DNA of 64,000 nt from Halobacteriovorax sp. (GTDB lineage Bacteria > Bdellovibrionota > Bacteriovoracia > Bacteriovoracales > Bacteriovoracaceae): positions 1 to 64,000 of the forward strand of contig PBIO01000009.1 in NCBI GenBank assembly GCA_002720865.1, read 5' to 3'. The translations under genes and the position numbers were made by a program. Below the pieces are notes generated by a model. The model had not been told where the DNA came from, made no database searches, and saw nothing but the letters and a program-made list of their open reading frames with translations. Positions 3,001-36,631 of the stretch are shown one piece after another. Numbering within the stretch: position 1 is the first letter of the stretch; each line of letters starts with the position of its first letter.

Positions 3001-5614
3001 TCCAATGACCGGTGGAGACTCATTAACGATACAAAAAGACCTAGATGTTGATGGTATTAGACCTACTGTTTCTCATGTACATGTAAACGACTTAGACGGT
3101 GAATATGGTATTGGTAAGCCATTTGAAATTTGGGTTGTAACCTCAGAGCCTGTATCTGTATCAGGATCACCAGTTCTGACTCTGGACTTAGATGGAACTC
3201 CAGCAACGGCTAACGCAACTTATGGAAGTGGAACGACTACGGATACCTTAAAGTTTGACTATCTTGTACTTGCTGGGCATGAAGCAGCCGACCTAGATTA
3301 TACAAATACGACAGCTCTTACAGCTGGTACATTTATTAGAGATGAACATGGAAACGACGCGACTCTTACGCTAGCAGCTCCAGGTGACCCTAACTCAATT
3401 TCGCATGATCAAGATATTGAAGTTAAAAACGTTGGACCACCAGACGCTATTGTTGATCTTGAAACAGCATCTAGATCTAAAAACTCTATTGAGCTTAACT
3501 GGACTGAGCCAGGAGATAATGGAACAGCAATTACCGATTATAGAGTTTACTATAAAATAGCCGGGGCTCCGAGCTGGACTCTCTTTAATGATGGGGTATC
3601 CCTTGACCTTAACGTTACAGTTACGGGTCTTTCAGTTAGCCAGGACTATGAGCTTATGGTTCAGGCCTATAACGGGGTTTATGCTTCATTAGATTCAAAT
3701 ATCGTGGCCGAAAGTACCTTCCCAAATAACCCATTTTTTGATGCGGATACTTTCCAGGCCTTTAATCTTGCTGGAACAACAGAATCTCAAATTGTCTCTT
3801 TTATTGATGATAATGTGATTACTGTTAGCGGGACTCCAACATTAACTCTTGATGCGGGTGAAACCGGAAGGATTACCGGTGGGCAAGGGACTATTGTAGA
3901 AGGAACCGGAGCTTTTTATCTCGCAGGAAGGTTGACTAATGGCGGAGGAGCAGGAAACACTGAAGAGGGTAATGTTGTCTGGCAAACAGCGGACTGGTCA
4001 GGAAAAGAGTTCTATTTTAATGGATCAAGAAGTCCTAGCCATAAAATTATTGTCCGCTTCTTCGAAGGATCAACCGGTGATGAAAGACAAGTTACAATCT
4101 CTGGTGGTGGACAAGCTGATGTAGTTTCAACAGGCCATGTGGCAGGAGATACGGTTGAACTTGAAGTTCTAGGAACAGGTTCTTATAGTCTTACAGCAAC
4201 GGGAACTGTTCTTGCCTACCAGTACTCAACAAATGGAACTTTTGGAACAAGGGTAGAGGATCCAAAACCTGTTGTGCCTAAGTCACTTAAAATAATTGGT
4301 GTACCATCTAGAAATGCTTATGTTTCTCCTGACGCTGATGGAACTGTAAGTTGGTGGGATTCTGCGACCAACACCGGAACTGATCCAACCTTTGCTGTTA
4401 CAGAAGGGGCGCAAAATACTCTAAACCCAGGTAGTACTCCTGATGCAAACTATACGGAGCAGGCCATGATTATTCAACATGCTTCAATTAGTGTGGCCGC
4501 TAGATCAACTGCTGACTCAGATGGTAATTGTTCAGCTCCATTTATGTCCACAGCTAGAATGAGAAGAAGTTTTGGTATTAACGTTGGAGCTCACTGGGTG
4601 AAACTTGCTTCAATTTATCCAGCAAAAGTATTTCAGCTTAATCCGGATGGAACAGTAGCAAGCTTTACTTTAAGTAGAGCAGGAACAAATGTGAACGCTC
4701 CATATGATCATTATATTGGTGCAGATGATGTGTTATCAGTTCAAGAAGGTACACTCTTTTTCTCTACTGCACGTATGCAGATGTGGTATGAACCGGATGA
4801 TGATACGAATAATGGATTTGCAAACTCTGCCAACGACGATGAAACAATTATGTTTGGCTGGGATGCTCCAGTACCGAATATGCAAAATATCGGAGCTGAC
4901 TTAATTGGTTGGTATGATTTTGACAATAAAAACTTCATGTTTACAGACTCTGCCTGTACAGATGGGAATCAGCCTACTACTGATAACGACAATATTGGTT
5001 GTGTGCGTGACCTCTCTGGTAACGGTAACGATGCCACAATTGGATCTAATTACCCTGCCTTTAAGAAGGATGTAACGGCCTTTGGTGGAAGAAATGGTAT
5101 TGAGTTTGCTGACACATTAGAGAAACTAAATATCTCTACTTCAGCGCTTGAAGGAACAGAGTATACTATCTGTGCTGCTGTCCTAAGAAAGGCTATGAGC
5201 TCCACTGTTGATAACTACTTTATTGGTATTCCTTCAACAAATACTAATGAAGGATTACAGGTTGGTTACTCAGCAGATACAACACTGATGTTCACTCAAG
5301 TAACAAATGACTTAACGAGAGGAACCGTGACTTATACTCCAACAACTCCAGCAGTTGTATGTGCTGAGCTTGATTCAACAGGAAAAGCTATTATTGAGAA
5401 ACGCGCTGGTACTGAAAGGACCACTAGCGATGCTGTAACTACACAAATTCAAGCCTCTGCTCCTAACACCCTCAATATTGGTCAAGGTAATAATGGTCAA
5501 GGCTTCGATGGTACTATCGGTGAGATCTTAATTTTCAACAATTCCATGACAGATGCTGAACGTCTAGAAGTGGAGAACTATCTCATCAAGAAATGGAATG
5601 TCTCCGGCTTCTAA
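2..5614 (+). CDS. Giant Ig-like repeat surface protein, 5' end outside window
   Basis: The reading frame is open from base 2, so the gene starts upstream of the window; 1,870 codons are visible. The visible N-terminal part is a tandem array of ~103-residue bacterial Ig-like units, each with KVGDVVTLSFTV, TVTIDG, a GDT turn, an LDFTDAAGN-type strand and a closing SSVTFDE. Three more divergent beta-sandwich units follow (about 2303-3435). Next come a fibronectin type III-like domain (about 3436-3715, with SIELNWTEPGDNG), an unassigned beta-rich stretch, and a C-terminal LamG/concanavalin-like module (about 4890-5614, with DLSGNGNDA and ENYLIKKW). No C-terminal anchor is visible. Such architecture is typical of secreted adhesins; the actual ligand cannot be read from sequence. 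A shorter version starting at ATG 329 would be an artefact, because the repeat pattern continues upstream. Confidence 0.9.
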   Translation, partial: YQANYTAQAGDTEAALGFTLDFTDATGNPATQVVAVTDGSSVTFDESVPTATSVSIYSNNANTSLAKVGDVVTLSFTVSEPLLGSPTVTIDGNATTLAGSYPTYQASYTMQTGDTQAALGFTLDFTDVVGNNAVQVTAVTDASSVTFDETAPSSTPRTIFSNNANTTLAKVGDIVTLSFTVNETLIGNPSVSIDGNSATIGGTHPVYQATYTMQAGDTTGVLTYAIDITDAAGNAAGTIATVTDGTTVTFDETLPSATPVTIYSNNANTALAKVGDVVTLSFTVSEPLLGSPTVTIDGKAATIAGAYPTYQANYTTQAGDTDGVLAFTLDFTDLAGNAATQVTAVTDASSVTFDEVLPTATPVTIASNNGNTALAKIGDVVTVSFTVNEPLLGNPTVTIDGNATTLGGAYPNYNASYTMQTGDTQAALSFTLDFTDASGNPATQVTAVTDASSVTFDETAPLATSVTIYSNNGNTSRAKVGDVVTLSFTVNETLLGNPSVSIDGNSATIGGAYPTYTASYTMQSGDTQAALGFVLDFTDAAGNPAVQVTAVTDASSVTFDESQPTASPVTIYSNNGNTSLAKVGDDVTLSFTVSEPLLGSPTVTIDGNSATIGGSYPTYTATYTMQAGDNDGILVFTLDFDDAVGNSATQVTAVTDVSSVTFDEVAPTATPVNIASNNVDQVWAKVGDVVTVSFTVNEPLLGSPTVTIDGNPATIGGTYPNYSASYTMQTGDTEAVLTFTVDFDDAAGNSATQITAVTNASSVTFDETAPVLQFVDSFTDNGTYNNPDLIQITAHYNDNMKVVTANPIITLETGASDGEATYSGATAETLTFNYTVADGENSTDLTFDNATTINLNGGVISDLAGNVPVSTALPDNGSGDSISDRDQVIIDTAEPTVLRVSATNANGLFGIGDTIDIEVIFSEPVSVSVATPNLTMETGTTDQVVSYSSGSSTDTLVFQYTVQVGDDNANLDYVATNSLNKNGANIRDAGDNDADVTLDTPMTGGDSLTIQKDLDVDGIRPTVSHVHVNDLDGEYGIGKPFEIWVVTSEPVSVSGSPVLTLDLDGTPATANATYGSGTTTDTLKFDYLVLAGHEAADLDYTNTTALTAGTFIRDEHGNDATLTLAAPGDPNSISHDQDIEVKNVGPPDAIVDLETASRSKNSIELNWTEPGDNGTAITDYRVYYKIAGAPSWTLFNDGVSLDLNVTVTGLSVSQDYELMVQAYNGVYASLDSNIVAESTFPNNPFFDADTFQAFNLAGTTESQIVSFIDDNVITVSGTPTLTLDAGETGRITGGQGTIVEGTGAFYLAGRLTNGGGAGNTEEGNVVWQTADWSGKEFYFNGSRSPSHKIIVRFFEGSTGDERQVTISGGGQADVVSTGHVAGDTVELEVLGTGSYSLTATGTVLAYQYSTNGTFGTRVEDPKPVVPKSLKIIGVPSRNAYVSPDADGTVSWWDSATNTGTDPTFAVTEGAQNTLNPGSTPDANYTEQAMIIQHASISVAARSTADSDGNCSAPFMSTARMRRSFGINVGAHWVKLASIYPAKVFQLNPDGTVASFTLSRAGTNVNAPYDHYIGADDVLSVQEGTLFFSTARMQMWYEPDDDTNNGFANSANDDETIMFGWDAPVPNMQNIGADLIGWYDFDNKNFMFTDSACTDGNQPTTDNDNIGCVRDLSGNGNDATIGSNYPAFKKDVTAFGGRNGIEFADTLEKLNISTSALEGTEYTICAAVLRKAMSSTVDNYFIGIPSTNTNEGLQVGYSADTTLMFTQVTNDLTRGTVTYTPTTPAVVCAELDSTGKAIIEKRAGTERTTSDAVTTQIQASAPNTLNIGQGNNGQGFDGTIGEILIFNNSMTDAERLEVENYLIKKWNVSGF
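140..2302 (+). repeat. Seven in-frame 309-bp tandem repeats (Ig-like units)
   Basis: The codons for the closing TFDE motif end at 139, 448, 757, 1066, 1375, 1684, 1993 and 2302 (those at 139, 448, 1684, 1993 and 2302 were read base by base), consistent with a spacing of exactly 309 bp (103 codons). A further partial unit precedes base 139. Units differ at many synonymous sites, so the array is old or diverging rather than freshly amplified. The constant length fits selection on domain fold and the potential for in-frame expansion or contraction by recombination. Confidence 0.9.
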
Positions 5615-5729: not shown

Positions 5730-6323
5730 ATGCCGAGGAAAAACCTTATTCGAACAGATCAGTTTCCCTACCACGTAACAATTAGATGTAATAATAAAGA
5801 ATGGTTTGATCTACCGAGAGAAGATGTTTGGAGGTACTGTATTTCCTCTATTAGAATAGCCTCTAAAAAGTATCCAGTTAAGATTCAAGCATTTGTCCTA
5901 ATGGGAAATCACTATCATCTTATGATCTGGACCCCAAATTCTGATTTAGATCGTTTCATGTATGAAATGAACAGGACATTATCAAAATATTTAAGGCAAG
6001 AGACTAGGCGAATAAACAGGATTTTTGGGGATCGATACAAGTGGAGTCTTATTCAAAATGAAATATATTATCAAATTGTATTGAAATATATTTATCAAAA
6101 CCCTGTAAGGGCGGGGATTTCTAATTTTTGTGAGGAGTATAGATTCTCGACTCTTTATTATTTTTTAAACTTAGATATTCTACCATTTGAGCTTTATAAA
6201 CCGACAATAGGTGATAAAAATGAATTTCTTAAATGGGTTAATAGTGAATATGAAAACAGGGAAAGAGAGAAAATTCAAAAAGCTCTTAAAAGACCAGTGT
6301 TCAAGTGGCATAAATTTAATTAG
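5730..6323 (+). CDS. REP-associated tyrosine transposase (RAYT, Y1_Tnp family)
   Basis: The 197-residue product is a Y1 HUH-type transposase-like protein. The metal-binding HUH motif is HYH in MGNHYHLMIW (residues 61-63). The candidate nucleophile is Tyr120 in the LKYIYQNPVRAG segment, the signature of the RAYT/TnpA-REP branch rather than of IS200/IS605 elements. RAYTs are single-copy domesticated relatives thought to cut and mobilise REP palindromes in single-stranded DNA. This gene is bracketed by inverted REP-like palindromes at 5618-5642 and 6341-6364. Its last 8 bases overlap the end of the convergent giant gene. The upstream region has no obvious Shine-Dalgarno sequence and the start is ATG at 5730. 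Catalytic motifs are intact, so it may be active. Confidence 0.88.
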   Translation: MPRKNLIRTDQFPYHVTIRCNNKEWFDLPREDVWRYCISSIRIASKKYPVKIQAFVLMGNHYHLMIWTPNSDLDRFMYEMNRTLSKYLRQETRRINRIFGDRYKWSLIQNEIYYQIVLKYIYQNPVRAGISNFCEEYRFSTLYYFLNLDILPFELYKPTIGDKNEFLKWVNSEYENREREKIQKALKRPVFKWHKFN

Positions 6324-9300
6324 CCTTTGACGCGATACGGCCCAAAAGGAGCATGGAACCTTTGAGGAGGAGGAAGTAGAAAAGGAATTCGAGAAGGCCG
6401 AAGGGCCACGAAGGTCCGTTAGATCCGGTGCCATCATCTGCAACAGCAGAGCAACCTCCACCTGCGGCACTGGCCTGACTGGCCGGAGCCGGAGCAGCAG
6501 TAACTGGGGCTGAGTTAAAGACGGCCTCCGGAATTCTCATAGAAGGGTCACCAATTAGCACCATCGATTTTACTGTGTCGTTAGTAACCGCATCAGAGCT
6601 TTGCTTTAGCTTTGAGGCTAAGAACATATCACCAATAGTAGTATCTTTATCAAAATTTGTTTTTGATTCTTGGACTAGCTCATTCATAAAAGAAGTTGCT
6701 AAGTTATTTTGAGAAACAGGAGAGGATAAAGTCGTTGATCCCCAAAAAGCTACGGCCCCGCCATCTTTATTAAGTACCATCTCTTCAGCGAGAGAAGTAT
6801 TTGATCCATTGGCGTCATAGAAGTGACCATTCAGACAATTAAAGGCCATGATGATTGGAAGCTTATCATTAGTTAAGGCTTTAGCATCGGCTACTTCATA
6901 AAAAGTATTTCCATCATAACTACCCCATTCTCCTTCACCTCCATGGCCATAATAGGTAACCACTAGAGGGGAGTCATTCAATAAACTATTAATTTGAGTT
7001 TTCGTAGCAGCATCACTACCAATCTGATTTCTATCGACTATATCTGAATCAGTTGATGAGAAGTGCTGTCCTGATATACTTGAAAGGTTTGAGACGTAAC
7101 TCGAAAACCCTTCATTGTCTTCGGTACCAACAATATAAGAAGCCGTTTTTAATTTGTCTCCTAGAGGAGCTTTATCTCCAGCTTCGTAGTTTAGAAGTTT
7201 AGTAATATAATTTTCCAGAACGATAGGGTCAGAGGTTGGAATTCGACCAATACTTAATCTTGGAAGTCCCGTTATATTGTCTTCACCGAACCATTGATCA
7301 GAGCCAAAATCATTATGAAGGCCTTTTACAAGTGGCATCGGCGTTTTCTTTATGCCAGCACTTATGGCTAAGTCAGCTTTTGAGTCATAAGTGGCGTCTC
7401 CTAAAAGAAGGAGGTATTTTGGCTTAACATCGTAATTATCCAGTGTGTACTGAACAAAGTCTTTTACTGCCTGAATAGAAACTCTACCGTGGCTAAACTG
7501 AGAGTAGATTTGATCGTAACTAACCTCCATGACCTCTAGCCCCTGTGACTCTCTGGCGTCTATAAGAGGCTGAGAGATATCAATAAGACCTTGTTCGCCT
7601 ATAATGAGTAAGTCAGCTCCATTCGATGAATCTTTAAGGTCGTAAATATAACCATCCACAAGTTTAAGTGATTCAACTGAATTAAAACTATTGGCATCTT
7701 TTATCCAAAGCTTTTTACCACTCCTACCAAACTCACCTGGGTGTGTGTTAAAGAGGGTGTAATAAGTAGAACCACCATCATTAGTGTTGATGGCCTGATC
7801 TTGATATTTTAAACCTTCGTTAGAGTTAGATATGTCATAAATGGAAATCTGATTTGATGAAAAATTACCAGCATACACTTGACTATGAGCTTCTGCATTT
7901 CCAATAATTAAATTAGTTCCGTCAGATTCATTTAAGGCATTATAGGTTATCTCGACTTTATCGATATAGATCATATCGTAATCACCAGCTAGCTCTAACT
8001 TATCTCCCTGGGCCTCAAGACGTATGACATTACTTCCTTGAACAAACTGTCCACTTGGTATCTCAAAGGTATGGGCCGTTGGCATATTTGTGCTAAACTC
8101 CACCGAGTCTAATAAGTTTGACCCATTAAGCTTTAGGCCTAGGTGATGTTTTGTACTTTCGTAAGAGTAAAAGGACATTCGTCCAGTAAAATAGACTTTT
8201 ATATAAACGGTACTGCCAATATTTTGATTTAACTTATTTAGATCTGCTGTAACATCTAATCTAGAGTAAGTATTTGGAGTGCTACCTTTGACCGTAACAA
8301 GTCTTTTCCAGTAGAGATGTTCAATATTTCCGCCAATTGGCACATCAAAGAGTGCCGTTAAGTTTTTCTCGTATAGGTCAGTCCTCTCTACTGAATCTAA
8401 ATCGCGATCAGGAATGGCGTTATTATTATTAACCGGATCAAATCTTCTAGGGGAGTCCCAGTATTCAGAATCATTCTCCTCATCCATATCAAAGAGGGTT
8501 AAAACAACTTCATCTAAATTATCTTCTATTGAATACTCAAAAGGAGCGTAAAAACTAATTTTATCACCTGAATTGAAAACACCATCAGCGTCTTCAATTT
8601 CTATTGGAAGTTCCTTCCCGTGATAATAAAGTCTTAAATCAGAAGTATTTTCTAAGTGGAAAGGTCCTTCTAAATAGTCATTATAAAGATCGTCATAGCT
8701 TATTTGGTAGAAGCCTTCCGCTGTGTACTTAATCCTTAGGTTTCCTTCCCAAGCTGAGGGCTCCACAATAGAGGTATCTGCTGGAGGACTATAATCCCAA
8801 GCATCACCATCTAGTCCCACATCAAGGACAATATCATCTAACTTAGTAAGACTATTGGCGACTGGATTATATTTTAAGGGAGTTATAAAAACTTCAAGGT
8901 AATACTTATTTCCAATTTGCTTTGCAGTGTTGGAAACAGTGACAAAAGAGCTAGGTAAAACTTGATTGTTGCTATAAAAGTTAGAGTCAATTGAATATAT
9001 TGGTTCTAGAACATTACTATTATTAAGCACCCAAGAAGGAGCGGGTGCAATATCGTCGCCAGAGAGATCTCCTGATTTATCAGAAGTATTTATAGAGACT
9101 TGATTACTCGTACTGCTTGTAAAATTAACATCTACTGGGATAAGTACCGTTCTCGTTAGAAGCTCTGGCTTATCAGCCTCTATTGTTTTTGAATAACCGT
9201 TGATGGCCACATTTTTATAATTTCCATCCCAACTTGAAACTGAAGTATTAAGTGCCGCGGGGCTTATTTTAATTCTTAAAGAACTATTTGTTTGGGCCAA

Positions 9301-12300
9301 TATTGAAACACCAGCACCTAGATCTATGACAGGATTTGGACTTGGAAGTTCATTTTCACCCGCTCCAGCTGGAGGAATTGAACCATTGGCTGCATCAGTT
9401 TTTGCGCTAACCGGTCCATGGGTCTTTTTCGAACCATCGATGGCTACGTCTTCAATTTTATAGTAATAAACTTTGTCATTTGTCAGTCCTAAGTCTTCAA
9501 ATCTATAGTAACCACGAAGAGAAGAAGAGGTGAGATAGTTCCTTAGAAGAGAGCTATTGATTTGTACGTAGTTTCCATCATAAGAGTCACTTCTATAAAT
9601 ATTAAAACCAAGGTGGTCAGTTTCCATTATAGTATTCCAAGTTAGAAGAATACTCTCATCGTACCCACTGGCCATAAAGTCCTGAAGAGTAACTGGGGAT
9701 GCACCGATATCCATAACGACCTGACAGTTTGGCCCAGTATCGTCTTGGTCAAAGATTTTTGCTTCTGGATCTACTCCCTGCTGGTAAAAATCTCCAAACC
9801 ATCCGTCAAAGACTATAGTGTTGCCTCCACAGTCATTAGCGTAGACAAGATAGTAGGTATCTGAGCCACTAGGTCCACCGGGGGCAGAAGCGTTAAAATC
9901 TTGCCAGGTAAAGCCAATATTAGCAGCAATGGCAGCAGAAATAGGAGTTGTTGTGTTTAAGTTTAAGGCCTTAACAGGAGTAACATAATCTGCTTTAAGA
10001 TTGGTGAATTGTCCCCCTTGAAAAGTGGTAAGATTCGAGGTTCCATTTATTTGAAGACCGTTAACATCTATTCTATCTAAGATAAATCCTGAAAGGGAAA
10101 CTTGCCCGGAAGTAGCAACAAAACTCCAGTCATTTGAGCCTCCACCCACGGCCGTTAACTTTGCTTTATTTGTTTCACTTTGAAAACTAGGTGTTGAGTA
10201 AGTATCGTTGATACCGGTGGTTTGAAAAGTTCCGCCACTAACAGTAATTGTTTGTGCATTTCCAACTTCAACTGTTCCCTGGTTATCGATTAGAAAAGTA
10301 CCTTTGTTAATCGTCGCACCACCATTTAGGGTTAGAGTAGATGAACCTTCAACTTTAAAGGTAGAGGTGTTTGTGCCAGTAAAGGTAAGGCTTTCCATAG
10401 CAAAATCATTTGATGAATTACTAAGATTACCTCCTGCCGATTTAGAGATTTCAACATTTCCTAAATTATTAGCTGTAATAATATTTTGATCAGAAGCAAT
10501 CACTCCATCATCGGTGAATCGAAGGATTCCGTCGTTGTGAGTAAAGGTTCCTGTGTTGGTGAAATCACCATGAACTTCGAGAACGGCACTCGTAGCATTG
10601 GTCATGGTGACAACACCGGATCCGATTTGAACGTCTTTACAAATTGCTGTCCCACTAGAAATAACTGGATCGTTCGCCTTATCATCAATTATACAATCTA
10701 AATCTTTAGTGGGAACTCCGTTACTCCAGTTCGCTGGGGTAAACCAATTTGTATCTGTTGATCCAAGCCATTCCGTTGAAGTAGGTGAGATACCCCACTT
10801 AACCATTAAGTAATTCTCAACGTCTGTGACTTCTCCAGCGGTTAGGGCCCTATTAAAAATAATCAGTTCTGCTAAGTGACCACCCCAGGTTCTTCCACCA
10901 CAACATGAAATTCTATCCCTTGAAAAAGAAGATGCTGTCGTATTACCAGTCGTTACAAGAGATAAAACAGCGGGAGAAGAAGGCATTGTTGTGGTAGTTC
11001 CTGTGATAGTAACTTGATCATGCTTAAGAGTCCCGCCTGTTACATTGGCAGAGGCAGAGCCGCCAAAGATATTCCCACCGGTCGAGGCCCTAGAAAAATG
11101 TTGAGTTGCACCACTCGGATCACCGAGTAAGAAAGCCGTATCTCCTAAATTTGAGGTATCCTCCTGAATTACCCAAAAAACAGTTCGGATATCAGTCATA
11201 GAACCAAAATCTAAGAATTCATTTTGTGAGCCGTCAAAGTAAGCAGATTGAAGACCATTAAAACCAGAGGTTTTAAACTTTGGTGCGTTAGTTGTGTTAG
11301 CATTTATGGCGTGATTATCTGACCCAGACTTATCTTTTAAGCATTTAATTCTACTATCATTAGCTGAGGCAATGGAAGTACATGACGAGTCTGTGAAAAG
11401 CTGTTCGTCATCTTCTAAATCGATCCAAAGATTCAGTCCAGTTGCACTTATACCTCCCGGACTAGTAAGGGTAAAACCTGTACTTGAAATTTCCGAAGAA
11501 GAGTTGCCCGCAAGGTCAACGGCCTTCACTGTAATATAATAAGTGTCGGTATAATTAAGGTAAGGAGATAATCCTGTATATTGATAAGTCGTGCTCGTTC
11601 CAATATTTGAAAACCCTGATACCTCTGTTCCTCCTGAAGTCGTACCAAGGGCTACTTCGTAATGAGAAAAACCACATGAGTCAGTACTGGCGTTCCAGCT
11701 TAGAGTTTTTGTTTTAGTTAAACCTGGTAGTCCCGTTAGTGAAAGACTTGTAGGGTCGGTCGGGTCAGTTGTATCCGTAGCGACGCAAGTTGCTACTTGC
11801 CAGGCACTACTTGTTTTAACTCCTGATTTATTGCCTGCAGAGTCTACACCTCTTACGGAAGTATAATAGTTAGTAGCAGTCGTAAGGGCCGGTGAGATAC
11901 CTGTAAAAGTATGAGAGTTTGTATTACCTACATTAGTCCAAGATACGGCTTCATCACCGCCTGAAGTTGTACCGATCGCTACCTCATAGTGAGAAAAAGA
12001 GCATGATTCACTTGCACTTGACCAGGTAAAGATTTCACTTGTCGTGGTATTAGCTGTACCAGTTAAGGTTCCTGTCGCAGGAGTCGTTGGAGCGGTTCCA
12101 TCATAGAAAAAGGCAGTCCCTTCTGAAATAGGGGAGACAAAGGTATCTGTATCAAAGGCCTTAAGAGAAACATAATAAGGTGTACATTCTGAGGTTGAAA
12201 TACCAGTTACCGTTTTATTATTTGTTAGGCCAATATCTGTCCATCCATAAAGATCGTTAGCACTAGGGGAAGTTCCAATGGCCATCTCGTAATTATTTAA

Positions 12301-15300
12301 ATCAGGTGCAGTTGAATGTGTCCAACTTATGAGTGGTGTAGAGTTTGAGACTGAAGTATAAGTATTGGAATAAGTAATATCTGTAGGAGCATCAGGAGCG
12401 GCATCAAACCATTTATTATAAAGATAATTTTCTACATCCTCTACTTCAGTTGAAGAAAGGGCCCTAGAATAGATAATAACTTCTACAATATCACCTTGAA
12501 AGAATCTGCCCCCAACTTTTCTATCAGAAGATAAATGATCGGCATCAACATTTCCAGCAGTGACAACAGAGTAAAGTGAATATTGACCTGACTGGTTATA
12601 GTTAGAGGGATCACTTTCTGAAGAGCGGTTAACTTTCCAAGTTCCGGATATGAGGTTACTACTTGCCGTTCCATTGGCGAGAAGAGTCCCATTATTAGTG
12701 TACCAATGTTGAGTCGTAGTATCTCCTAGAAGTAATTGATGATTATTTGAGTCTGATTTATTAACTACAAAAACAGTTCTAATATTTGAAAGTCCAGTTC
12801 CAAAGTCTAAGGTGTCATTTGTTCCATCAAAACGGATGACTGGCATTCCGTTAAACTCATTAGTTTGATAGGTCGGATTGTTGGTCGCTATTGTTGCGTT
12901 GTTAGCTGAGGCTGACTTATCTTGCCAGCAAAGAACATTTTGTCCATCCGCAGTTACTGGCGTTGTACAAGCAGCATTTTGATAAAGAGTTCCAATATCA
13001 TCAGCATCATACCAGATTTCAAGACCGGTAGGATCAACTCCACCGGGTGAAGGTAGAGTCCATGGACCAGCAGAGGCAACACCGGAGGGATTCCCTGCCA
13101 AGTCAACGGCCCTAACAGAAAGGTAGTAATTCGTATTAGTGGAGAGGCTTGGGGATAGTGAGAAAAATTTATAAGAGGTCACATCACCAACATTTGTAAA
13201 AGCTACAACATCTGATGCTCCTGAACTTAATCCAATAGCAACTTCATAGTGAGATAAACCACAGGCGTCCGTACTTGCTGTCCAAGCTAAGTTCTCACTT
13301 GTTGTTGGTCCAGCAGCGCCACTTAAATTTAGTGCCGAAGGATCTGTTGGATTGGTAACGTCAGTGGCAACACAAGTATCAACTTGCCATGCGGAACTAT
13401 TAATGGCTGTACCGCGGTTACCGGCCGAGTCTACCGCCCTAAGACTAAAGTAATAGTTAGTGGCAGTTGCTAAGGTAATTCCAGTAAATTGATAACTGGT
13501 GACATTTCCAATATCCGTAAAGGAAACAGTGTCACTGGCTCCTGGGGTTGTTCCAATGGCAAGCTCATAGTGAGAAAAAGAACAAGAGTCAGTGGCTGGG
13601 TACCATGTGAATTGTTTAGAAACCGTCGTAGAGGCAGAACCTAAAACATTTGTATTGGAGGCAGAGGTAGGTGCTGTTGCATCGAACTTAAAGAAGTCCG
13701 ATGATACCACTGTAGATTCTTTAGGTTCCGTATCAACCGCTTTTACAGAGGCGAAATAATTTGTACATTCTGTTAAACTCATTCCGGTAATTGTCGTACT
13801 GGTGACATTTCCTTCGTCAGAGTAAGCATGAGTATCAGTCGCTCCTTGGCTAGTTCCTACGGCAACTTCATAGTGATCTACATCGGGGCTAATACTTGCG
13901 GTCCAACTTAAAAGAGGGGACGAACCAGATACTGAAGTATACTGAGAGGAAAGAGCGAGATTCGTTACCGGCTGAGGATCAGGCCATTTATTTACGAGGT
14001 AGTCATAAATATTTACAGCAGTTCCATCATCAATTGCTGAGTTCCACATGATAAATTCGAAAATTGAGCCGTTAAAATAGGCCCCATTCCCTGAAAGGGT
14101 TCCGTCGTCAAAGTAACTATCATTCTCCATTGCTCCCAGAGCAATTAGTCCCGCATGGGCATATAGTCGACTTGTTGTGGTTCCGAGGGCACTAAATTTT
14201 ACTCCATTTATATGTCCTCTAAGTTCTCCGTCAGGTCCCGTCGGGCCAGAGTAGTTAGAGTAGTCAAAGACTAGTGAAACATAATAATGAGTATTGGCCG
14301 CTACAGCAGTGCTTGAGGAAGTAAAGGCCTGAACTCCGTCACCATCGTTGGTATTATTCCAAACTCCAATATATAAATTACCGGCCCTAATATAAACATT
14401 AAGCCCTCTAACTGTACCACCCTCTTCGTAAATTACCTGACGAGATGTAACATCCGCGTTGGTTTTAAAAGCGATAGCAAAGGTTCTTTCATCTAGAGTT
14501 CCAAGATTTAAATCCGTATGATTTGTAAAGTCAAAATGATCATCTGTTCCATCAAATTGCATCATCTTATTAGTGGTATCAAAGTCTGGTCTTGATGCAG
14601 CCGTGGCCTGGGTAGCATTATGAATATTGGTAGAGCCAGAGACATCATTCCAGTCTTCAACATCAGTACTCGCAAAAGAAGTATCATTTGCATTTCTTGA
14701 GCTACCATCTAAGACAGATGTGAAGTCGGAACCGTCAAGATGTAGAACTTTGTTTGGGATATCATCAATATCAAAGGTCGGTATTTCGTTTGTTTTCTTT
14801 TGAATAGTTAAGTTTGCTACACCAGTAGATGTGGCCGTACCTGTTTGTGCCTCTAAAGCAGTTTCAATACGAAGAATATCGCCACTACTTATATTTGTTA
14901 AAGGCAATATCGTAGTACAGGAACTATTATTGTGACCATTTCCATTTCTCATATAATGAGTCGCACATTCGCCACCATCTAACGTAACACCATTAAGTTT
15001 AAAGTTTATATTGGGATTAATTCTTGCCGAAGTCGTAGTAAGCTCATCAGTGTAGTAGAGAAGATAGTCACCGGACTCATTAAAAGTTATCTCCTCTGAG
15101 TTAGTGGCCGTGTTATGTGAATAGGTGGTGGCATCCTTAAATCTTTGAGTATTCCACTGAAGAGCAACTCCTGCTGTAGCTGTATTCCAGTTCGTTCCAG
15201 AAGTTAGTGAGCTTGAAGTTAGGGATATTGATTCAGAGGTTGAGTCTATCCTTTCCATGTAAAGGGAAGCTTCTCTGCTACCAGGAACAGTTATTGTATT

Positions 15301-16239
15301 TAGTATTGTGGTCTCTGCCTGAACGGATACAGACAAAGTATCCGTGTTACTTAAATCAATGACCCCAAACCAGTGAATTGATGATCTCGTATGTCCTTGA
15401 GTACAGCGTATATAGCCTTGAGAAAAACTACCGCCACTAATGGGGCTACCATTAATTAGGAGCTCTCCAATTATATTTACTCTTTGATTGGTACAGGCAA
15501 CACTATGGTCTAGTGGGATATTTACAAAAACAAAATATGCGTCGGTACTAGAAACAGTTATATCTTCAGGAGTAGAACCTATATTGTGAGTATATATAGA
15601 ATCTTTAACATCGACATTTGACCACTCCATTTCAAAAGCAGTTGCTTGATTTAAATTGGTAGAATTTGTTGTCCTTGTCCCGGTGGCATAAAAAATATCT
15701 TTTGCTAAATCGACGAATTCAACAAAAAGCTTTGCTCCAGAAGTATCTAAATCGCCAGTGGCCGTTGCTTGGTTGAACTTGACTTCAATTTTATCGTTGG
15801 CCGATAAGCTTTTTAGTAAAATACCAAGATGAAGTGAAGACTCTTGATGGTCGTTTGCATTTCTAACATAACTTGACTCTGCGATGGCATGTGGAATGAC
15901 TGTACCGTTCACATAAACTTCGGCCCTAACAGAACGTCTACTTCCTGTAGTCGTCGTTAAGTAAAGGGGAACCGCTAGGGTTAGCTTATAGTCTCCCGCT
16001 TGAAGAACAGTTACTTGGTGAGAGAAGCTAGAAGTTGAGTGGTTAAAATAATTTGAATCAAATTTTGAGGAAGCCCATTTCATGGCGTAGGGGGTAGCTT
16101 GATTTAAATTATTTGGAGTTGCTGGAGCTGTTGTTTGAGTTCCAGAAAAGAACCCAACTTTTGAAATGACCGCGTAACTATTTACTGGCGCAAAAATGCA
16201 CAAAGCCAGTAATAGGAAATTTAGCCATATCGTCCTGAT
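6316..16239 (-). CDS. Giant multi-module surface protein with C-terminal gingipain-like (C25) cysteine protease
   Basis: About 3,307 residues if translated from ATC at 16239. In order: a signal peptide; three ~150-residue beta-sandwich repeats; a LamG-like module; three fibronectin III-like units; a second LamG; three more FN3-like units; a third LamG; a beta-helix-like region; one more FN3-like unit; a gingipain-like propeptide region; and a Peptidase C25 domain (nt about 7650-6540). The catalytic His lies in YYGHGGE (codon 6943-6945) and the Cys in AFNCLNGHF (codon 6835-6837), 36 residues apart, close to gingipain spacing. The C-terminus has GGGCS, a hydrophobic helix and a short basic tail, like Gly/Cys-type C-terminal sorting signals. 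Start: AAGGAG (16246-16251) precedes ATT-ATC-AGG in frame, and translation from there gives a full signal peptide ending NSYA. The first ordinary start in frame (CTG 16209, TTG 16203) would cut the signal peptide. Likely an exported, self-displayed protease. Confidence 0.88.
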   Translation of the reverse strand: MRTIWLNFLLLALCIFAPVNSYAVISKVGFFSGTQTTAPATPNNLNQATPYAMKWASSKFDSNYFNHSTSSFSHQVTVLQAGDYKLTLAVPLYLTTTTGSRRSVRAEVYVNGTVIPHAIAESSYVRNANDHQESSLHLGILLKSLSANDKIEVKFNQATATGDLDTSGAKLFVEFVDLAKDIFYATGTRTTNSTNLNQATAFEMEWSNVDVKDSIYTHNIGSTPEDITVSSTDAYFVFVNIPLDHSVACTNQRVNIIGELLINGSPISGGSFSQGYIRCTQGHTRSSIHWFGVIDLSNTDTLSVSVQAETTILNTITVPGSREASLYMERIDSTSESISLTSSSLTSGTNWNTATAGVALQWNTQRFKDATTYSHNTATNSEEITFNESGDYLLYYTDELTTTSARINPNINFKLNGVTLDGGECATHYMRNGNGHNNSSCTTILPLTNISSGDILRIETALEAQTGTATSTGVANLTIQKKTNEIPTFDIDDIPNKVLHLDGSDFTSVLDGSSRNANDTSFASTDVEDWNDVSGSTNIHNATQATAASRPDFDTTNKMMQFDGTDDHFDFTNHTDLNLGTLDERTFAIAFKTNADVTSRQVIYEEGGTVRGLNVYIRAGNLYIGVWNNTNDGDGVQAFTSSSTAVAANTHYYVSLVFDYSNYSGPTGPDGELRGHINGVKFSALGTTTSRLYAHAGLIALGAMENDSYFDDGTLSGNGAYFNGSIFEFIMWNSAIDDGTAVNIYDYLVNKWPDPQPVTNLALSSQYTSVSGSSPLLSWTASISPDVDHYEVAVGTSQGATDTHAYSDEGNVTSTTITGMSLTECTNYFASVKAVDTEPKESTVVSSDFFKFDATAPTSASNTNVLGSASTTVSKQFTWYPATDSCSFSHYELAIGTTPGASDTVSFTDIGNVTSYQFTGITLATATNYYFSLRAVDSAGNRGTAINSSAWQVDTCVATDVTNPTDPSALNLSGAAGPTTSENLAWTASTDACGLSHYEVAIGLSSGASDVVAFTNVGDVTSYKFFSLSPSLSTNTNYYLSVRAVDLAGNPSGVASAGPWTLPSPGGVDPTGLEIWYDADDIGTLYQNAACTTPVTADGQNVLCWQDKSASANNATIATNNPTYQTNEFNGMPVIRFDGTNDTLDFGTGLSNIRTVFVVNKSDSNNHQLLLGDTTTQHWYTNNGTLLANGTASSNLISGTWKVNRSSESDPSNYNQSGQYSLYSVVTAGNVDADHLSSDRKVGGRFFQGDIVEVIIYSRALSSTEVEDVENYLYNKWFDAAPDAPTDITYSNTYTSVSNSTPLISWTHSTAPDLNNYEMAIGTSPSANDLYGWTDIGLTNNKTVTGISTSECTPYYVSLKAFDTDTFVSPISEGTAFFYDGTAPTTPATGTLTGTANTTTSEIFTWSSASESCSFSHYEVAIGTTSGGDEAVSWTNVGNTNSHTFTGISPALTTATNYYTSVRGVDSAGNKSGVKTSSAWQVATCVATDTTDPTDPTSLSLTGLPGLTKTKTLSWNASTDSCGFSHYEVALGTTSGGTEVSGFSNIGTSTTYQYTGLSPYLNYTDTYYITVKAVDLAGNSSSEISSTGFTLTSPGGISATGLNLWIDLEDDEQLFTDSSCTSIASANDSRIKCLKDKSGSDNHAINANTTNAPKFKTSGFNGLQSAYFDGSQNEFLDFGSMTDIRTVFWVIQEDTSNLGDTAFLLGDPSGATQHFSRASTGGNIFGGSASANVTGGTLKHDQVTITGTTTTMPSSPAVLSLVTTGNTTASSFSRDRISCCGGRTWGGHLAELIIFNRALTAGEVTDVENYLMVKWGISPTSTEWLGSTDTNWFTPANWSNGVPTKDLDCIIDDKANDPVISSGTAICKDVQIGSGVVTMTNATSAVLEVHGDFTNTGTFTHNDGILRFTDDGVIASDQNIITANNLGNVEISKSAGGNLSNSSNDFAMESLTFTGTNTSTFKVEGSSTLTLNGGATINKGTFLIDNQGTVEVGNAQTITVSGGTFQTTGINDTYSTPSFQSETNKAKLTAVGGGSNDWSFVATSGQVSLSGFILDRIDVNGLQINGTSNLTTFQGGQFTNLKADYVTPVKALNLNTTTPISAAIAANIGFTWQDFNASAPGGPSGSDTYYLVYANDCGGNTIVFDGWFGDFYQQGVDPEAKIFDQDDTGPNCQVVMDIGASPVTLQDFMASGYDESILLTWNTIMETDHLGFNIYRSDSYDGNYVQINSSLLRNYLTSSSLRGYYRFEDLGLTNDKVYYYKIEDVAIDGSKKTHGPVSAKTDAANGSIPPAGAGENELPSPNPVIDLGAGVSILAQTNSSLRIKISPAALNTSVSSWDGNYKNVAINGYSKTIEADKPELLTRTVLIPVDVNFTSSTSNQVSINTSDKSGDLSGDDIAPAPSWVLNNSNVLEPIYSIDSNFYSNNQVLPSSFVTVSNTAKQIGNKYYLEVFITPLKYNPVANSLTKLDDIVLDVGLDGDAWDYSPPADTSIVEPSAWEGNLRIKYTAEGFYQISYDDLYNDYLEGPFHLENTSDLRLYYHGKELPIEIEDADGVFNSGDKISFYAPFEYSIEDNLDEVVLTLFDMDEENDSEYWDSPRRFDPVNNNNAIPDRDLDSVERTDLYEKNLTALFDVPIGGNIEHLYWKRLVTVKGSTPNTYSRLDVTADLNKLNQNIGSTVYIKVYFTGRMSFYSYESTKHHLGLKLNGSNLLDSVEFSTNMPTAHTFEIPSGQFVQGSNVIRLEAQGDKLELAGDYDMIYIDKVEITYNALNESDGTNLIIGNAEAHSQVYAGNFSSNQISIYDISNSNEGLKYQDQAINTNDGGSTYYTLFNTHPGEFGRSGKKLWIKDANSFNSVESLKLVDGYIYDLKDSSNGADLLIIGEQGLIDISQPLIDARESQGLEVMEVSYDQIYSQFSHGRVSIQAVKDFVQYTLDNYDVKPKYLLLLGDATYDSKADLAISAGIKKTPMPLVKGLHNDFGSDQWFGEDNITGLPRLSIGRIPTSDPIVLENYITKLLNYEAGDKAPLGDKLKTASYIVGTEDNEGFSSYVSNLSSISGQHFSSTDSDIVDRNQIGSDAATKTQINSLLNDSPLVVTYYGHGGEGEWGSYDGNTFYEVADAKALTNDKLPIIMAFNCLNGHFYDANGSNTSLAEEMVLNKDGGAVAFWGSTTLSSPVSQNNLATSFMNELVQESKTNFDKDTTIGDMFLASKLKQSSDAVTNDTVKSMVLIGDPSMRIPEAVFNSAPVTAAPAPASQASAAGGGCSAVADDGTGSNGPSWPFGLLEFLFYFLLLKGSMLLLGRIASKAN
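6341..6364 (+). repeat. REP-like palindrome, copy 2, inside a coding end
   Basis: CCCAAAAGGAGCATGG followed by AACCTTTG lies 17 bases beyond the transposase stop codon. On the minus strand it encodes KGSMLLLG near the C-terminus of the giant protease protein. It matches copy 1 in inverted orientation, with differences mainly at two central bases. Confidence 0.7.
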
Positions 16240-24247: not shown

Positions 24248-25411
24248 GTGAGAGTTTATATTCTTTTGCTTCTATTTTTCATAGGTTGTGCCACGGACTC
24301 TAAAAATGACCGAGATTACCTACGTGCGCCTGCAAGTCAGTTTCATTGTAGTGAAATTATTGAAAATCTTTTTGGAAGTCAAAATCGAGTTTTTGAAAAA
24401 AAGTTTTTGCAAAGGATAAGAAAATCCAAACAAGCTCTAAATCAAGTTGATAAAGACTACCTCTTAGAAAAGATTGACTTTTATGCGGTTCATTTAAAGG
24501 AAAAAAGTGAAATATTAGACCTTCTAAAAAAGAAAAGGAATATACTTAATAATGAATTTCTCCTTAGAGAAATCGAGGTTCTCGAAGAAAGTTTAGGGAG
24601 AGCTCCCCCAAAGAGTAGGCTGACATCACTTCAAAATGGTTTACGTCAAAATAATGATTTAACTGAGCAAAGGAAAGAAACTCTCATAGATTTAATTGAC
24701 TATATTCTAGGAGATATTTCATTTACAAAAATTAAAAAAATCGGAAAACAAGCACCTATTAACTCGAGTTACTCAGGAAGAAAATTTCCAATGGAGAAAC
24801 TTAGTGTAGACCTACAAGAAAAGTACCCAAATGGAGTTTGGTTTAATGAGGAGGGTTTTCCCATTTTCTCACTATACGCAACTAGAGCTGTTGAGATTAA
24901 GATTACAGGGGCAGGAAGATTTGATTTTATGCGGGCCAATTTAGCTGCTGGAATTGAAAGAGTGCCAGATGATATGACCTGGCATCATCATCAAGATGGA
25001 AAGACCATGCTTTTAATGCCGAGAGATATACATGATGCCGTTAAGCATAGCGGGGGAGTTGCTTTCGTTACTAAAAAGATTAAGAGAGTTAGAGGGGCCT
25101 TACCGGCCGGAACTGAATGGGCAGGTGAGAAATATCCTCTTGAAAATCTTCCTGCTAAATTAAGAAAAAAATACCCCAATAGCGTAAGGTATAAAATAAA
25201 TGGGCATCCCGATTTAAGGAATTATTCGGAACTAGATATAGTGATTGAATCAACTGGTAAACGACAATTAGACTTTAGGCTGGCAAACACTAAGGCGGGG
25301 TTTGAAAAACTTCCTCCTGGTAAAACATGGCATTTAAAAGAGGATGGCAAAACCATGCAGTTAGTTCCTAGGGATCTTTTAAAGGCTATCCCAAATACTC
25401 CACTTTGGTAA
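24248..25411 (+). CDS. Lipoprotein with tandem WHH/HNH-type nuclease domains, second one degenerate
   Basis: The 387-residue product starts at GTG (AGGG just upstream) with a lipoprotein signal, YILLLLFFIGC. A charged helical region (about 30-170) leads into two homologous ~100-residue domains. Domain 1 (about 180-270) has FDFMRANLAAG, then TWHHHQDGKTMLLMPRDIHD, the WHH signature of the HNH/Endo VII toxin-nuclease superfamily. Domain 2 (about 290-385) aligns with it throughout (LDFRLANTKAG, then TWHLKEDGKTMQLVPRDLLK), but the catalytic His residues are replaced. WHH domains normally end polymorphic toxins. Here the protein is a lipoprotein, and no small immunity gene adjoins it. It may be a secreted DNase used on prey, with the degenerate copy as a structural or inhibitory partner; that role is inference. 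Confidence 0.78.
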   Translation: MRVYILLLLFFIGCATDSKNDRDYLRAPASQFHCSEIIENLFGSQNRVFEKKFLQRIRKSKQALNQVDKDYLLEKIDFYAVHLKEKSEILDLLKKKRNILNNEFLLREIEVLEESLGRAPPKSRLTSLQNGLRQNNDLTEQRKETLIDLIDYILGDISFTKIKKIGKQAPINSSYSGRKFPMEKLSVDLQEKYPNGVWFNEEGFPIFSLYATRAVEIKITGAGRFDFMRANLAAGIERVPDDMTWHHHQDGKTMLLMPRDIHDAVKHSGGVAFVTKKIKRVRGALPAGTEWAGEKYPLENLPAKLRKKYPNSVRYKINGHPDLRNYSELDIVIESTGKRQLDFRLANTKAGFEKLPPGKTWHLKEDGKTMQLVPRDLLKAIPNTPLW

Positions 25412-25531: not shown

Positions 25532-27094
25532 ATGAAAAAATTAGTTTTACTTATATTGATCTTATCCTTAAATGTATTTGCTAATGAATACAAGTTTCCC
25601 TTCTATGAGTATGAAAAGCTTGTTCAAATAAATAAAGAGCAGTGTCGTCTCAATATCAAACATCAGCATATTATTGTTCAAAAGCACTATGAAGCAGATG
25701 TAAAACTACTGGCAATGCAGTGGATGGGAAAGATGCCTGGACTAAGAGATGGCCAACAGGTTTATAAGAATCTTCCTGGTCTCTCTCTTCAAAACAGGAT
25801 GAGGCATAGAGATATGTTTGTATTAGAGAAGATTGCCCATGAAGTCATTTCTTATGAAAAGAAGATGATTGAAGAATTAGGTGGAGATGCAGCAGGAAAT
25901 AATTGGAATAGGCTTCAAGCAAAATCTAGTTCCATTGTTGTTCAAAAGTTAAAAACTAGTCTGACTTATTTAGAAGAAATGGAAAGAACACTTCTAAATA
26001 TCTTGGGTTATCAATCAGCTCGGACAAGCGCTTATACTAATGAAGAGGACTCCTCAGAAAAAGGGAAGTACTCTAAAGGATTTAAACCAGGACTATATGA
26101 AGCTACCTATGCTTCTTCTGAATATGAAAAAAAACATAATAAATCCTGTATGTGGAATCCTGATAGGAAAATTGAAAAAAGAAGACCTTATTGTGGTTTT
26201 GTTTGGTCCCATGGTGGAAATTTTTATTTAGAGAGATGCCCTGGTGATGTCCACCCTTTTGGTAAGGGTCATGCAGAGGGGGCAGGTGTAAAGAACGTCG
26301 TCGATATATTTGATTTTAAGGAAGTCAAAAAATGTGACCCGACTCCTAATTGTAATAAGAGGTGTTTCGACTATTGTTTGAAAAAGAATCAGTTCAATAC
26401 GAAAAATCAAGAGGAGCTTGTTAAGGGAGAATGTAAGGCATTAGCGGATCCTCTTTTTCCAGCCCAAGCTCCCAATCCGTTTGGTCAAAAGGCTAAAAAG
26501 TACAGTAACCTAACGGACTGGTATCTCGACGACTTTCAAAGCTTTCCAGTTTATTACCCCAAGTTTAGTAAAAATAATAAAAATGAAAAAGATGTGACCG
26601 TAGAAATTGAACGTTATTATCTTATGACGGGTGAATACGAAAAAGAAGATTGTCGCTCTGGAAAAAGAAAATTCTTATTAGAAATCTTAGACTCTATTAA
26701 ACAGCTTATCTCACTTGAGAAAAATTTAATCGAATACTATGAGACCGCAAGCTCTTGTCATATAAAACTCGCTGAAAAAATTGAAGATGCTGCTGGTGTA
26801 GGAGTTAAGCATCATGCTCTAGATTCTCTAGGAACAAAGGCCTCAACAGGCCCTTCCGGGTTAACGGCAATTGAAAAAGGGAAGACTGAGAAAGATAAGC
26901 CAAAAGCCTTAACTGAAGAAGAGCAAAAACAAGCGGATGCTTCCTTTCTTGGCCTGAGCATTAGAGAGCAAAATGAATTGTTAAAAAAGCTAGAAAAAAG
27001 TGGCTTTAAGTTCACGGAAAATCATCTAGGTTTAATATGTAAAAGAACCATGAAAAAAGATTTTTGCGGTGGAACAAAAAATAATAAAAAATAA
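25532..27094 (+). CDS. Exported Cys-containing protein of unknown function
   Basis: The 520-residue product has a signal peptide (KKLVLLILILSLNVFA), a helical Lys-rich N-terminal half, a Cys-rich centre (about residues 210-310, including NCNKRCFDYC) and a predicted helical C-terminus with a linker rich in Lys/Glu/Thr. The Cys pairs suggest disulfides in an exported protein. AGGGTGG lies 5 bases before the ATG, within a leader that contains three copies of a 9-bp repeat. I recognise no family. It may be cotranscribed with the small exported protein at 27187. Confidence 0.7.
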   Translation: MKKLVLLILILSLNVFANEYKFPFYEYEKLVQINKEQCRLNIKHQHIIVQKHYEADVKLLAMQWMGKMPGLRDGQQVYKNLPGLSLQNRMRHRDMFVLEKIAHEVISYEKKMIEELGGDAAGNNWNRLQAKSSSIVVQKLKTSLTYLEEMERTLLNILGYQSARTSAYTNEEDSSEKGKYSKGFKPGLYEATYASSEYEKKHNKSCMWNPDRKIEKRRPYCGFVWSHGGNFYLERCPGDVHPFGKGHAEGAGVKNVVDIFDFKEVKKCDPTPNCNKRCFDYCLKKNQFNTKNQEELVKGECKALADPLFPAQAPNPFGQKAKKYSNLTDWYLDDFQSFPVYYPKFSKNNKNEKDVTVEIERYYLMTGEYEKEDCRSGKRKFLLEILDSIKQLISLEKNLIEYYETASSCHIKLAEKIEDAAGVGVKHHALDSLGTKASTGPSGLTAIEKGKTEKDKPKALTEEEQKQADASFLGLSIREQNELLKKLEKSGFKFTENHLGLICKRTMKKDFCGGTKNNKK

Positions 27095-35959: not shown

Positions 35960-36067
35960 TAGTTGATTTTTTTCATTTACAATTGCCTAGGGCAACTAAA
36001 TAATTAGAAAGCTTTAATAATAAACAAGAATAAATATAGAAAATGAATTCTTTATTTGGAGGAAAAA

Positions 36068-36631
36068 ATGGCTAAGAAAAAAGCTACAAAAAAGAAAGCA
36101 ACTAAGAAAAAAGCTACAAAGAAAAAAGTAGCAAAGAAAAAAGCAACTAAGAAAAAAGCTGCTAAGAAAAAAGTAGCAAAGAAAAAAGCTACTAAGAAAA
36201 AAGCAACTAAGAAAAAAGCTGCTAAGAAAAAAGCAACTAAGAAAAAAGCTACTAAGAAGAAAGCTACTAAGAAAAAAGCAACTAAGAAAAAAGTAGCTAA
36301 GAAAGCAACTAAGAAAAAAGCTACTAAGAAGAAAGCAACTAAGAAAAAAGCTGCTAAGAAGAAAGCTAAGAAGAAAACTAAAAGAAAGCCAAACGCTGCT
36401 TTTATGAAGCCTCTTACTCCTTCTGCTAAACTAGCTGCTGTTATTGGATCAAAAGCTGTTCCAAGAACTCAAGCTGTTAAGCTTATCTGGAAGTATATCA
36501 AGAAGCATGATTGTCAAAACCCAAAGAACAAAAGAAACATCATTGCTGACGCTAAACTTAAGGCCGTATTTGGTAAGAACGAAGTAACAATGTTCGAACT
36601 TGCTAAGATCCTTAACAAGCACCTTTCTTAA
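36068..36631 (+). CDS. Histone H1-like Lys/Ala repeat protein with C-terminal SWIB domain
   Basis: The 187-residue product starts at ATG 36068, with GGAGG at 36058-36062. Residues 2-110 are an almost pure repeat of KKATKKKA/KKVAKK units, as in bacterial histone H1-like proteins, and would bind DNA without sequence preference. Residues ~112-187 form a SWIB/MDM2 domain (LTPSAKLAAVIGSKAVPRTQ, then KLIWKYIKKHDCQNP and VTMFELAKILNKHL). The same combination of SWIB with a Lys-rich tail is known from Chlamydiae and some other bacteria. It probably compacts or organises the nucleoid, possibly in a growth-stage-dependent way. The repeat DNA is low complexity and could vary in length between strains. 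A strong terminator follows at 36666. Confidence 0.92.
   Translation: MAKKKATKKKATKKKATKKKVAKKKATKKKAAKKKVAKKKATKKKATKKKAAKKKATKKKATKKKATKKKATKKKVAKKATKKKATKKKATKKKAAKKKAKKKTKRKPNAAFMKPLTPSAKLAAVIGSKAVPRTQAVKLIWKYIKKHDCQNPKNKRNIIADAKLKAVFGKNEVTMFELAKILNKHLS

What the first reader, a model, noticed from the sequence alone, without database searches (positions are those of the whole stretch)
24248..25411. Lipoprotein with two tandem WHH nuclease domains, one active-looking and one degenerate
Domain 1 keeps TWHHHQDGKT while the aligned domain 2 reads TWHLKEDGKT. WHH domains usually end polymorphic toxins and need an immunity protein. Here the protein is a lipoprotein with no adjacent immunity gene and carries its own degenerate copy. 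That copy could dimerise with or hold the active domain in check until export, or bind DNA.
Basis: partly seen in the sequence, partly recalled or inferred. Interest (0 to 1): 0.62.

Follow-up and report, generated by a model that had tools for sequence, protein, structure and literature searches.

The report
Lipoprotein nuclease with dead tandem twin
A bacterium of the predatory Halobacteriovorax lineage carries a predicted envelope lipoprotein with an intact-looking DNA-cutting domain of a toxin family, followed by a second copy that has lost its cutting residues but is still conserved, and without the antidote gene that usually accompanies this toxin; the second copy probably helps hold DNA, but this is untested.

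Summary
The 387-aa ORF 24248-25411 (+) has a predicted lipoprotein signal, a helical N-domain and two tandem WHH (PF14414) domains. Domain 1 keeps every family-invariant catalytic residue (W-H-H, H, HxG), and its model matches the crystal structure of the RhsP WHH DNase (Z 12.7). Domain 2 loses three of four histidines and the HxG glycine. Both orthologs show the same losses, yet domain 2 is under purifying selection: a retained non-catalytic domain. The gene occurs in all three genomes of its genus searched and nowhere else in about 370 genomes of the phylum. Nearly all other WHH proteins checked end in one WHH domain, usually followed directly by a SUKH immunity gene; no SUKH gene was found in this genome. 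The nearest characterised analogue is the Myxococcus lipoprotein SitA1. Most likely it is an exported envelope DNase whose dead copy adds DNA-binding surface. New variant of a known kind, moderate interest.

The parts
24248..24289 (+). Predicted type II (lipoprotein) signal, residues 1-14, lipobox FIGC with Cys14; Ala at +2
   Evidence: Sequence; the lipobox residue pattern matches in all three orthologs; Cys14 invariant
24290..24742 (+). Helical N-terminal domain, residues 15-165; no known family, fast-evolving; invariant Cys34
   Evidence: No reliable Pfam or NCBIfam match; helices in the AF2 model at low confidence; 65% and 30% identity to orthologs; profile search of the order finds it convincingly only in the 3 genomes of the genus
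24743..25057 (+). WHH domain 1, residues 166-270, catalytic set intact (W245 H246 H247 ... H262 ... H267xG269)
   Evidence: PF14414 / PF12639; all family-invariant residues present; structure match 8bd1_A Z 12.7, 106 aligned residues
24977..25006 (+). Motif TWHHHQDGKT
25058..25099 (+). Basic linker VAFVTKKIKRVRGA, residues 271-284 (net +5; +5 and +4 in the orthologs)
   Evidence: the model around it (residues 269-293) has pLDDT under 50
25100..25408 (+). WHH domain 2, residues 285-387, non-catalytic (W361 H362 L363 ... L378 ... N383, no HxG), net +6
   Evidence: PF14414 29 bits on its own; the same residues lost in both orthologs; conserved 85% and 59%; charge
25325..25354 (+). Motif TWHLKEDGKT

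Best explanation
It is an exported, lipid-anchored, probably outer-membrane DNase. The protein leaves the cytoplasm by Sec as a lipoprotein precursor (inferred from the signal). Domain 1 is a metal-dependent HNH/Endo VII-type WHH nuclease (inferred from complete catalytic residues and the structural match to the RhsP DNase). Domain 2 is a second WHH copy that was in place before the three species split, has lost catalysis and is kept as a basic non-catalytic domain which, with the basic linker, adds DNA-binding surface near domain 1 (inferred). No immunity protein is needed because the enzyme works outside the cytoplasm (inferred). The likely role is digestion of prey or environmental DNA at the cell envelope (inferred from the lineage's lifestyle only).
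For: Domain 1 keeps W, H, H, L, H, HxG, invariant in the 14-sequence alignment, and matches the solved RhsP WHH DNase 8bd1. Domain 2 lost the equivalents of H247, H262, H267 and G269 in all three orthologs, yet has pN/pS of about 0.14 (domain 1 0.10, N-domain 0.31) for the window/L002 pair, so it looks functional but not catalytic. Domain 2 net charge is +6, +5, +7 and the linker +5, +5, +4 in the three species, against -1 to 0 for domain 1. Lipobox in all three. No SUKH gene in the genome and no T6SS sheath gene. Single-copy, genus-conserved gene, unlike mobile multi-allele toxins. Exported nucleases are established in Bdellovibrio (PMC7925074).
Against: No activity, localisation or DNA binding has been measured. 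Net charge is a crude guide: single WHH domains with a complete signature range from -7 to +21. WHH domains are described as largely restricted to polymorphic toxins (PMC3482391), and a lipoprotein WHH protein that is a toxin exists (SitA1). The named orthologs come from metagenome-assembled genomes, so predation is inferred from lineage. L024 and several other relatives also lacked a detected SUKH gene in the DNA fetched, so absence of SUKH alone is not diagnostic.
Confidence: 0.5

Rival explanations
1. Intramolecular restraint: domain 2 packs on domain 1, or forms a pseudo-dimer with it, and keeps the nuclease off until export or release, acting as a built-in immunity module.
For: No immunity gene found; fixed 1:1 tandem conserved in three species with domain 2 lacking the catalytic residues in each; in RhsP the immunity protein masks the DNA-binding site, and dimerisation (through another region) is needed for action.
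Against: Linker residues 269-293 have pLDDT under 50 and pTM is 0.52, so no fixed contact is predicted. Domain 2 is basic, whereas the nine SUKH-type antidotes checked are net -7 to -20. A Sec-exported protein crosses unfolded and needs no restraint in the cytoplasm (general knowledge).
Confidence: 0.17
2. A SitA-like delivered toxin: an outer-membrane lipoprotein with an escort N-domain passed into neighbours or prey, where WHH domain 1 cuts DNA; domain 2 helps delivery or entry.
For: SitA1 is an outer-membrane lipoprotein with a PF12639/WHH DNase C-terminal domain that is toxic after transfer (PMC5562445); same order of lipoprotein signal, N-domain and WHH domain here.
Against: sitAI genes are always found together (PMC8546572) and no SUKH gene is here; one conserved copy, not a polymorphic set; domain 1 is not at the C-terminus as in the relatives. 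The test for the TraA repeat was uninformative because no control rang.
Confidence: 0.2
3. Domain 2 is a decaying remnant without function.
For: It lacks the catalytic residues and evolves somewhat faster than domain 1.
Against: 85% and 59% identity against 65% and 30% for the N-domain, low pN/pS, and 59 invariant columns of 102; full length in all three species.
Confidence: 0.04

Closest known systems
SitA1 of Myxococcus xanthus (lipoprotein toxin delivered by outer membrane exchange)
   Same: Outer-membrane lipoprotein with an N-terminal domain and a PF12639/WHH DNase domain (PMC5562445)
   Different: SitA1 has a downstream SUKH immunity gene sitI1 and needs TraAB exchange; no SUKH gene was found here. 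No tandem degenerate WHH copy is mentioned in the passages read
RhsP (VP1517) of Vibrio parahaemolyticus, WHH domain (PDB 8bd1, 8h8a-c)
   Same: WHH nuclease fold, 33% identity over 106 aligned residues, Z 12.7; same WHH...H...HxG residues
   Different: RhsP is a T6SS Rhs effector with one C-terminal WHH domain and the RhsPI immunity protein; the present protein is a predicted lipoprotein with two WHH domains and no antidote found
Tox-WHH polymorphic toxins of Zhang et al. 2012 (PMC3482391)
   Same: Domain 1 has the family signature
   Different: Domain 1 is not C-terminal, there is no Imm-SUKH gene, and a catalytically dead second copy follows
Secreted nucleases of Bdellovibrio bacteriovorus (Bd0934, Bd3507; PMC7925074)
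   Same: Exported DNases of bacteria from the same phylum; no immunity protein is mentioned in that paper
   Different: Secreted out of the cell; 'lipoprotein' does not occur in that paper; relation to WHH not tested here

Membership tests
Tox-WHH / PF14414 nuclease domain (domain 1) | Signature WHH, L, H, HxG (PMC3482391) and profile score above cut-off | tested here: met
   (55 bits)
Tox-WHH / PF14414 nuclease domain (domain 1) | HNH/Endo VII nuclease fold | tested here: met
   8bd1_A Z 12.7, rmsd 3.1, 106 residues; Foldseek E 2.6e-6
Tox-WHH / PF14414 nuclease domain (domain 2) | Catalytic signature WHH, H, HxG | tested here: not met
   WHL or WHM, L, N/V; HxG absent in all three orthologs; homologous by profile only (29 bits)
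Polymorphic toxin system (Tox-WHH + Imm-SUKH) | Adjacent immunity gene | tested here: not met
   No SUKH near or in the genome with PF09346 and PF14568; other or unknown immunity families not excluded
Polymorphic toxin system (Tox-WHH + Imm-SUKH) | Toxin domain at the extreme C-terminus | tested here: not met
   Domain 1 is followed by linker and domain 2; relatives end 0-9 residues after the domain in nearly all cases
SitA lipoprotein toxins | Lipoprotein signal | tested here: met
   Lipobox residue pattern matched in three orthologs; Cys at 14, one short of the range in the rule as recalled; prediction only
SitA lipoprotein toxins | Cognate sitI gene in an operon | tested here: not met
   (SUKH-type only)
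SitA lipoprotein toxins | TraA/TraB outer membrane exchange machinery | tested here: inconclusive
   TIGR04201 gave no hit but no control rang
T6SS effector (RhsP-like) | T6SS in the genome | tested here: not met
   No VipB/TssC (PF05943); E. coli control rang
Active exported DNase | DNase activity and envelope location | not testable with these tools
   Needs purified protein and fractionation

The most novel reading that the evidence does not exclude
A toxin-family nuclease that replaced its antidote gene with a dead copy of itself fused in the same chain: the degenerate WHH domain acts as a built-in regulator (a pseudo-dimer partner or cap) that controls the active domain after export.
Probability: 0.13. 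Interest if true: 0.72.

Novelty: new variant of a known kind. Interest (0 to 1): 0.42.

Why it matters
WHH domains are described as largely confined to polymorphic toxins with antidotes. A genus-conserved, single-copy lipoprotein WHH nuclease without SUKH, carrying a conserved catalytically dead twin, looks like a domesticated toxin domain. If true it would show how a conflict toxin can become an envelope enzyme in a predatory lineage, and how a dead enzyme copy is reused. It gives a small testable system: one protein, two domains, clear deletions.

Tried and rejected
First AF2 job on the full protein with 3 sequences gave pLDDT 56 and pTM 0.31, not usable for domain placement; the second, on the two domains with 14 sequences, was good within domains but not between them. 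Coordinates and an error matrix were not available, so contact between the domains could not be measured. Searching viral contigs with the domain 1 sequence, the domain 2 sequence, or a domain 2 profile found no relatives. Weak N-domain hits (E 0.003-0.01) in four genomes of the same family cover only parts of the profile and were taken as chance. Pfam WASH_WAHD and the NCBIfam hits to the helical N-domain are below cut-off and rejected. The second weak WHH hits in L028 and L034 (domain E 0.006-0.01) were not followed up and not counted as tandem copies. PADLOC gave nothing. The tree does not show whether domains 1 and 2 are each other's closest relatives: each is a clade at 100/100, but their join is unresolved, so a tandem made by duplication within the gene is likely but not proven.

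Full report
WHAT IS THERE. The ORF at 24248-25411 (+) codes for 387 aa from a GTG start. It reads: a 14-residue signal ending in a lipobox Cys, a helical domain of about 150 residues, and two WHH domains joined by a 14-residue basic linker. The two WHH domains align over 99 columns without gaps at 39 identities; the score of 208 compares with a shuffle mean of 25 and maximum of 43 in 1000. Pfam WHH and Colicin-DNase both match well above cut-off, and each domain passes the WHH cut-off on its own (55 and 29 bits).

DOMAIN 1. In an alignment of 14 sequences (three species plus eleven relatives from viral contigs) the invariant residues include W, H, H, L, H, H and G of the WHH...L...H...HxG signature. 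Domain 1 has all of them: W245, H246, H247, H262, H267, G269. The published signature is WHH, L, H, HxG (PMC3482391). The third His of the HHH run is Tyr in L002, so it is dispensable. By sequence the nearest solved structures are the RhsP WHH DNase entries. In 8h8a the HxG histidine reads Ala while it is His in 8bd1, which looks like an inactivating change made by the depositors (inference). The AF2 model of the two domains matches 8bd1_A at Z 12.7 over 106 residues, with HNH domains of Cascade variants as weak further matches to either half. Domain 1 therefore has a nuclease fold and a complete site; activity is inferred.

DOMAIN 2. It reads WHL (WHM in L003); the residue aligned to H262 is Leu, and the one aligned to H267 is Asn or Val; HxG is gone. 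It keeps one histidine of four and is not expected to carry the usual metal site. Yet it is full length in all three species and 85% and 59% identical to the orthologs, against 65% and 30% for the N-domain; pN/pS for the window/L002 pair is about 0.14, against 0.10 for domain 1 and 0.31 for the N-domain (synonymous sites are near saturation, so these are rough). It is being kept for something other than catalysis. The tree has all domain 1s as one clade and all domain 2s as another (100/100 each), so the tandem and the degeneration predate the split of the three species.

DISTRIBUTION. Full-length relatives occur only in the three genomes of the same genus (named Halobacteriovorax in the public records of the two MAGs). 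A WHH profile over 369 genomes of the phylum finds over-cut-off matches only in these three. A domain 2 profile over 358 genomes of the phylum finds domain 2 and domain 1 of the same three, and otherwise two chance-level hits. In L003 the gene lies next to the same large FG-GAP gene as in the window, with the cytochrome c assembly genes nearby; in L002 the downstream genes are the same as in the window. So it is a stable chromosomal gene.

THE ANTIDOTE. Of five relatives read from plasmids and a phage, four have an annotated SMI1/KNR4 gene directly downstream and the fifth (L017) a protein that reads like one. So do L018-L021 and most further viral relatives; some, such as L024, L028, L029, L031, L034, L045 and L046, had none detected in the DNA fetched. 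In nearly all relatives the WHH domain ends within 10 residues of the C-terminus. The window has no such gene and the genome none by PF09346 or PF14568. Other immunity families are not excluded.

HOW IT LIKELY WORKS. Three facts bear on domain 2. First, the linker region (residues 269-293) is modelled below pLDDT 50, and the two-domain model has pTM 0.52, so no fixed packing is predicted; this does not prove the domains never touch. Second, domain 2 is net +5 to +7 and the linker +4 to +5 in all three species, while domain 1 is near zero and nine SUKH-type antidotes are -7 to -20. That speaks for contact with DNA and against an acidic mask like SUKH, although single WHH domains vary widely in charge. 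Third, the protein has a lipoprotein signal, so domain 1 would fold only outside the cytoplasm and a cytoplasmic antidote is not needed (general knowledge of Sec export; inferred here). The best-supported account is an exported envelope DNase with a dead twin kept as DNA-binding surface. Shown: sequence, homology, conserved loss, conservation, charge, no SUKH. Inferred: export, activity, DNA binding, role in prey or environmental DNA digestion.

COMPARISON. The closest characterised analogue is SitA1 of Myxococcus xanthus, an outer-membrane lipoprotein with a PF12639/WHH DNase domain and a SUKH immunity gene (PMC5562445). The present protein resembles it in layout but fails the cognate sitI test; sitAI genes are always together (PMC8546572). 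It has no T6SS for an RhsP-like route. Bdellovibrio has exported nucleases made in sequence during predation (PMC7925074), which makes an exported DNase ordinary for the lifestyle. What is not ordinary is the use of a toxin-family domain with a conserved dead copy.

VERDICT. Observation confirmed; interpretation partly supported; new variant of a known kind; interest 0.42.

Noticed in passing
window 6316-16203 (-): A 3295-aa protein with a C25 (gingipain-type) peptidase domain and C25 propeptide plus fn3 and laminin-G-like regions: a very large, probably secreted protease.
   Followed up: partly
window 329-5614 (+): A 1761-aa surface-type protein made of near-identical repeats and an fn3 domain.
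   Followed up: partly
window 5730-6323 (+): A Y1 (IS200-like) transposase-family protein between the two giant surface genes.
   Followed up: partly
window 36056-36631 (+): A SWIB/MDM2 domain protein with a long histone-H1-like KKATKKK run at its N-terminus.
   Followed up: partly
window 24347-24349 (+), residue 34 of the lipoprotein: A lone cysteine (C34) besides the lipobox Cys is invariant in the three orthologs; role unknown.
   Followed up: no
window 25532-27094 (+): A 520-aa protein with a signal-like start and no family match, next to the lipoprotein gene; kept downstream in L002 but not in L003.
   Followed up: no
L024 2057-2767: A single-domain WHH protein on a 290-kb viral contig with no SUKH gene detected in the DNA fetched.
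   Followed up: no
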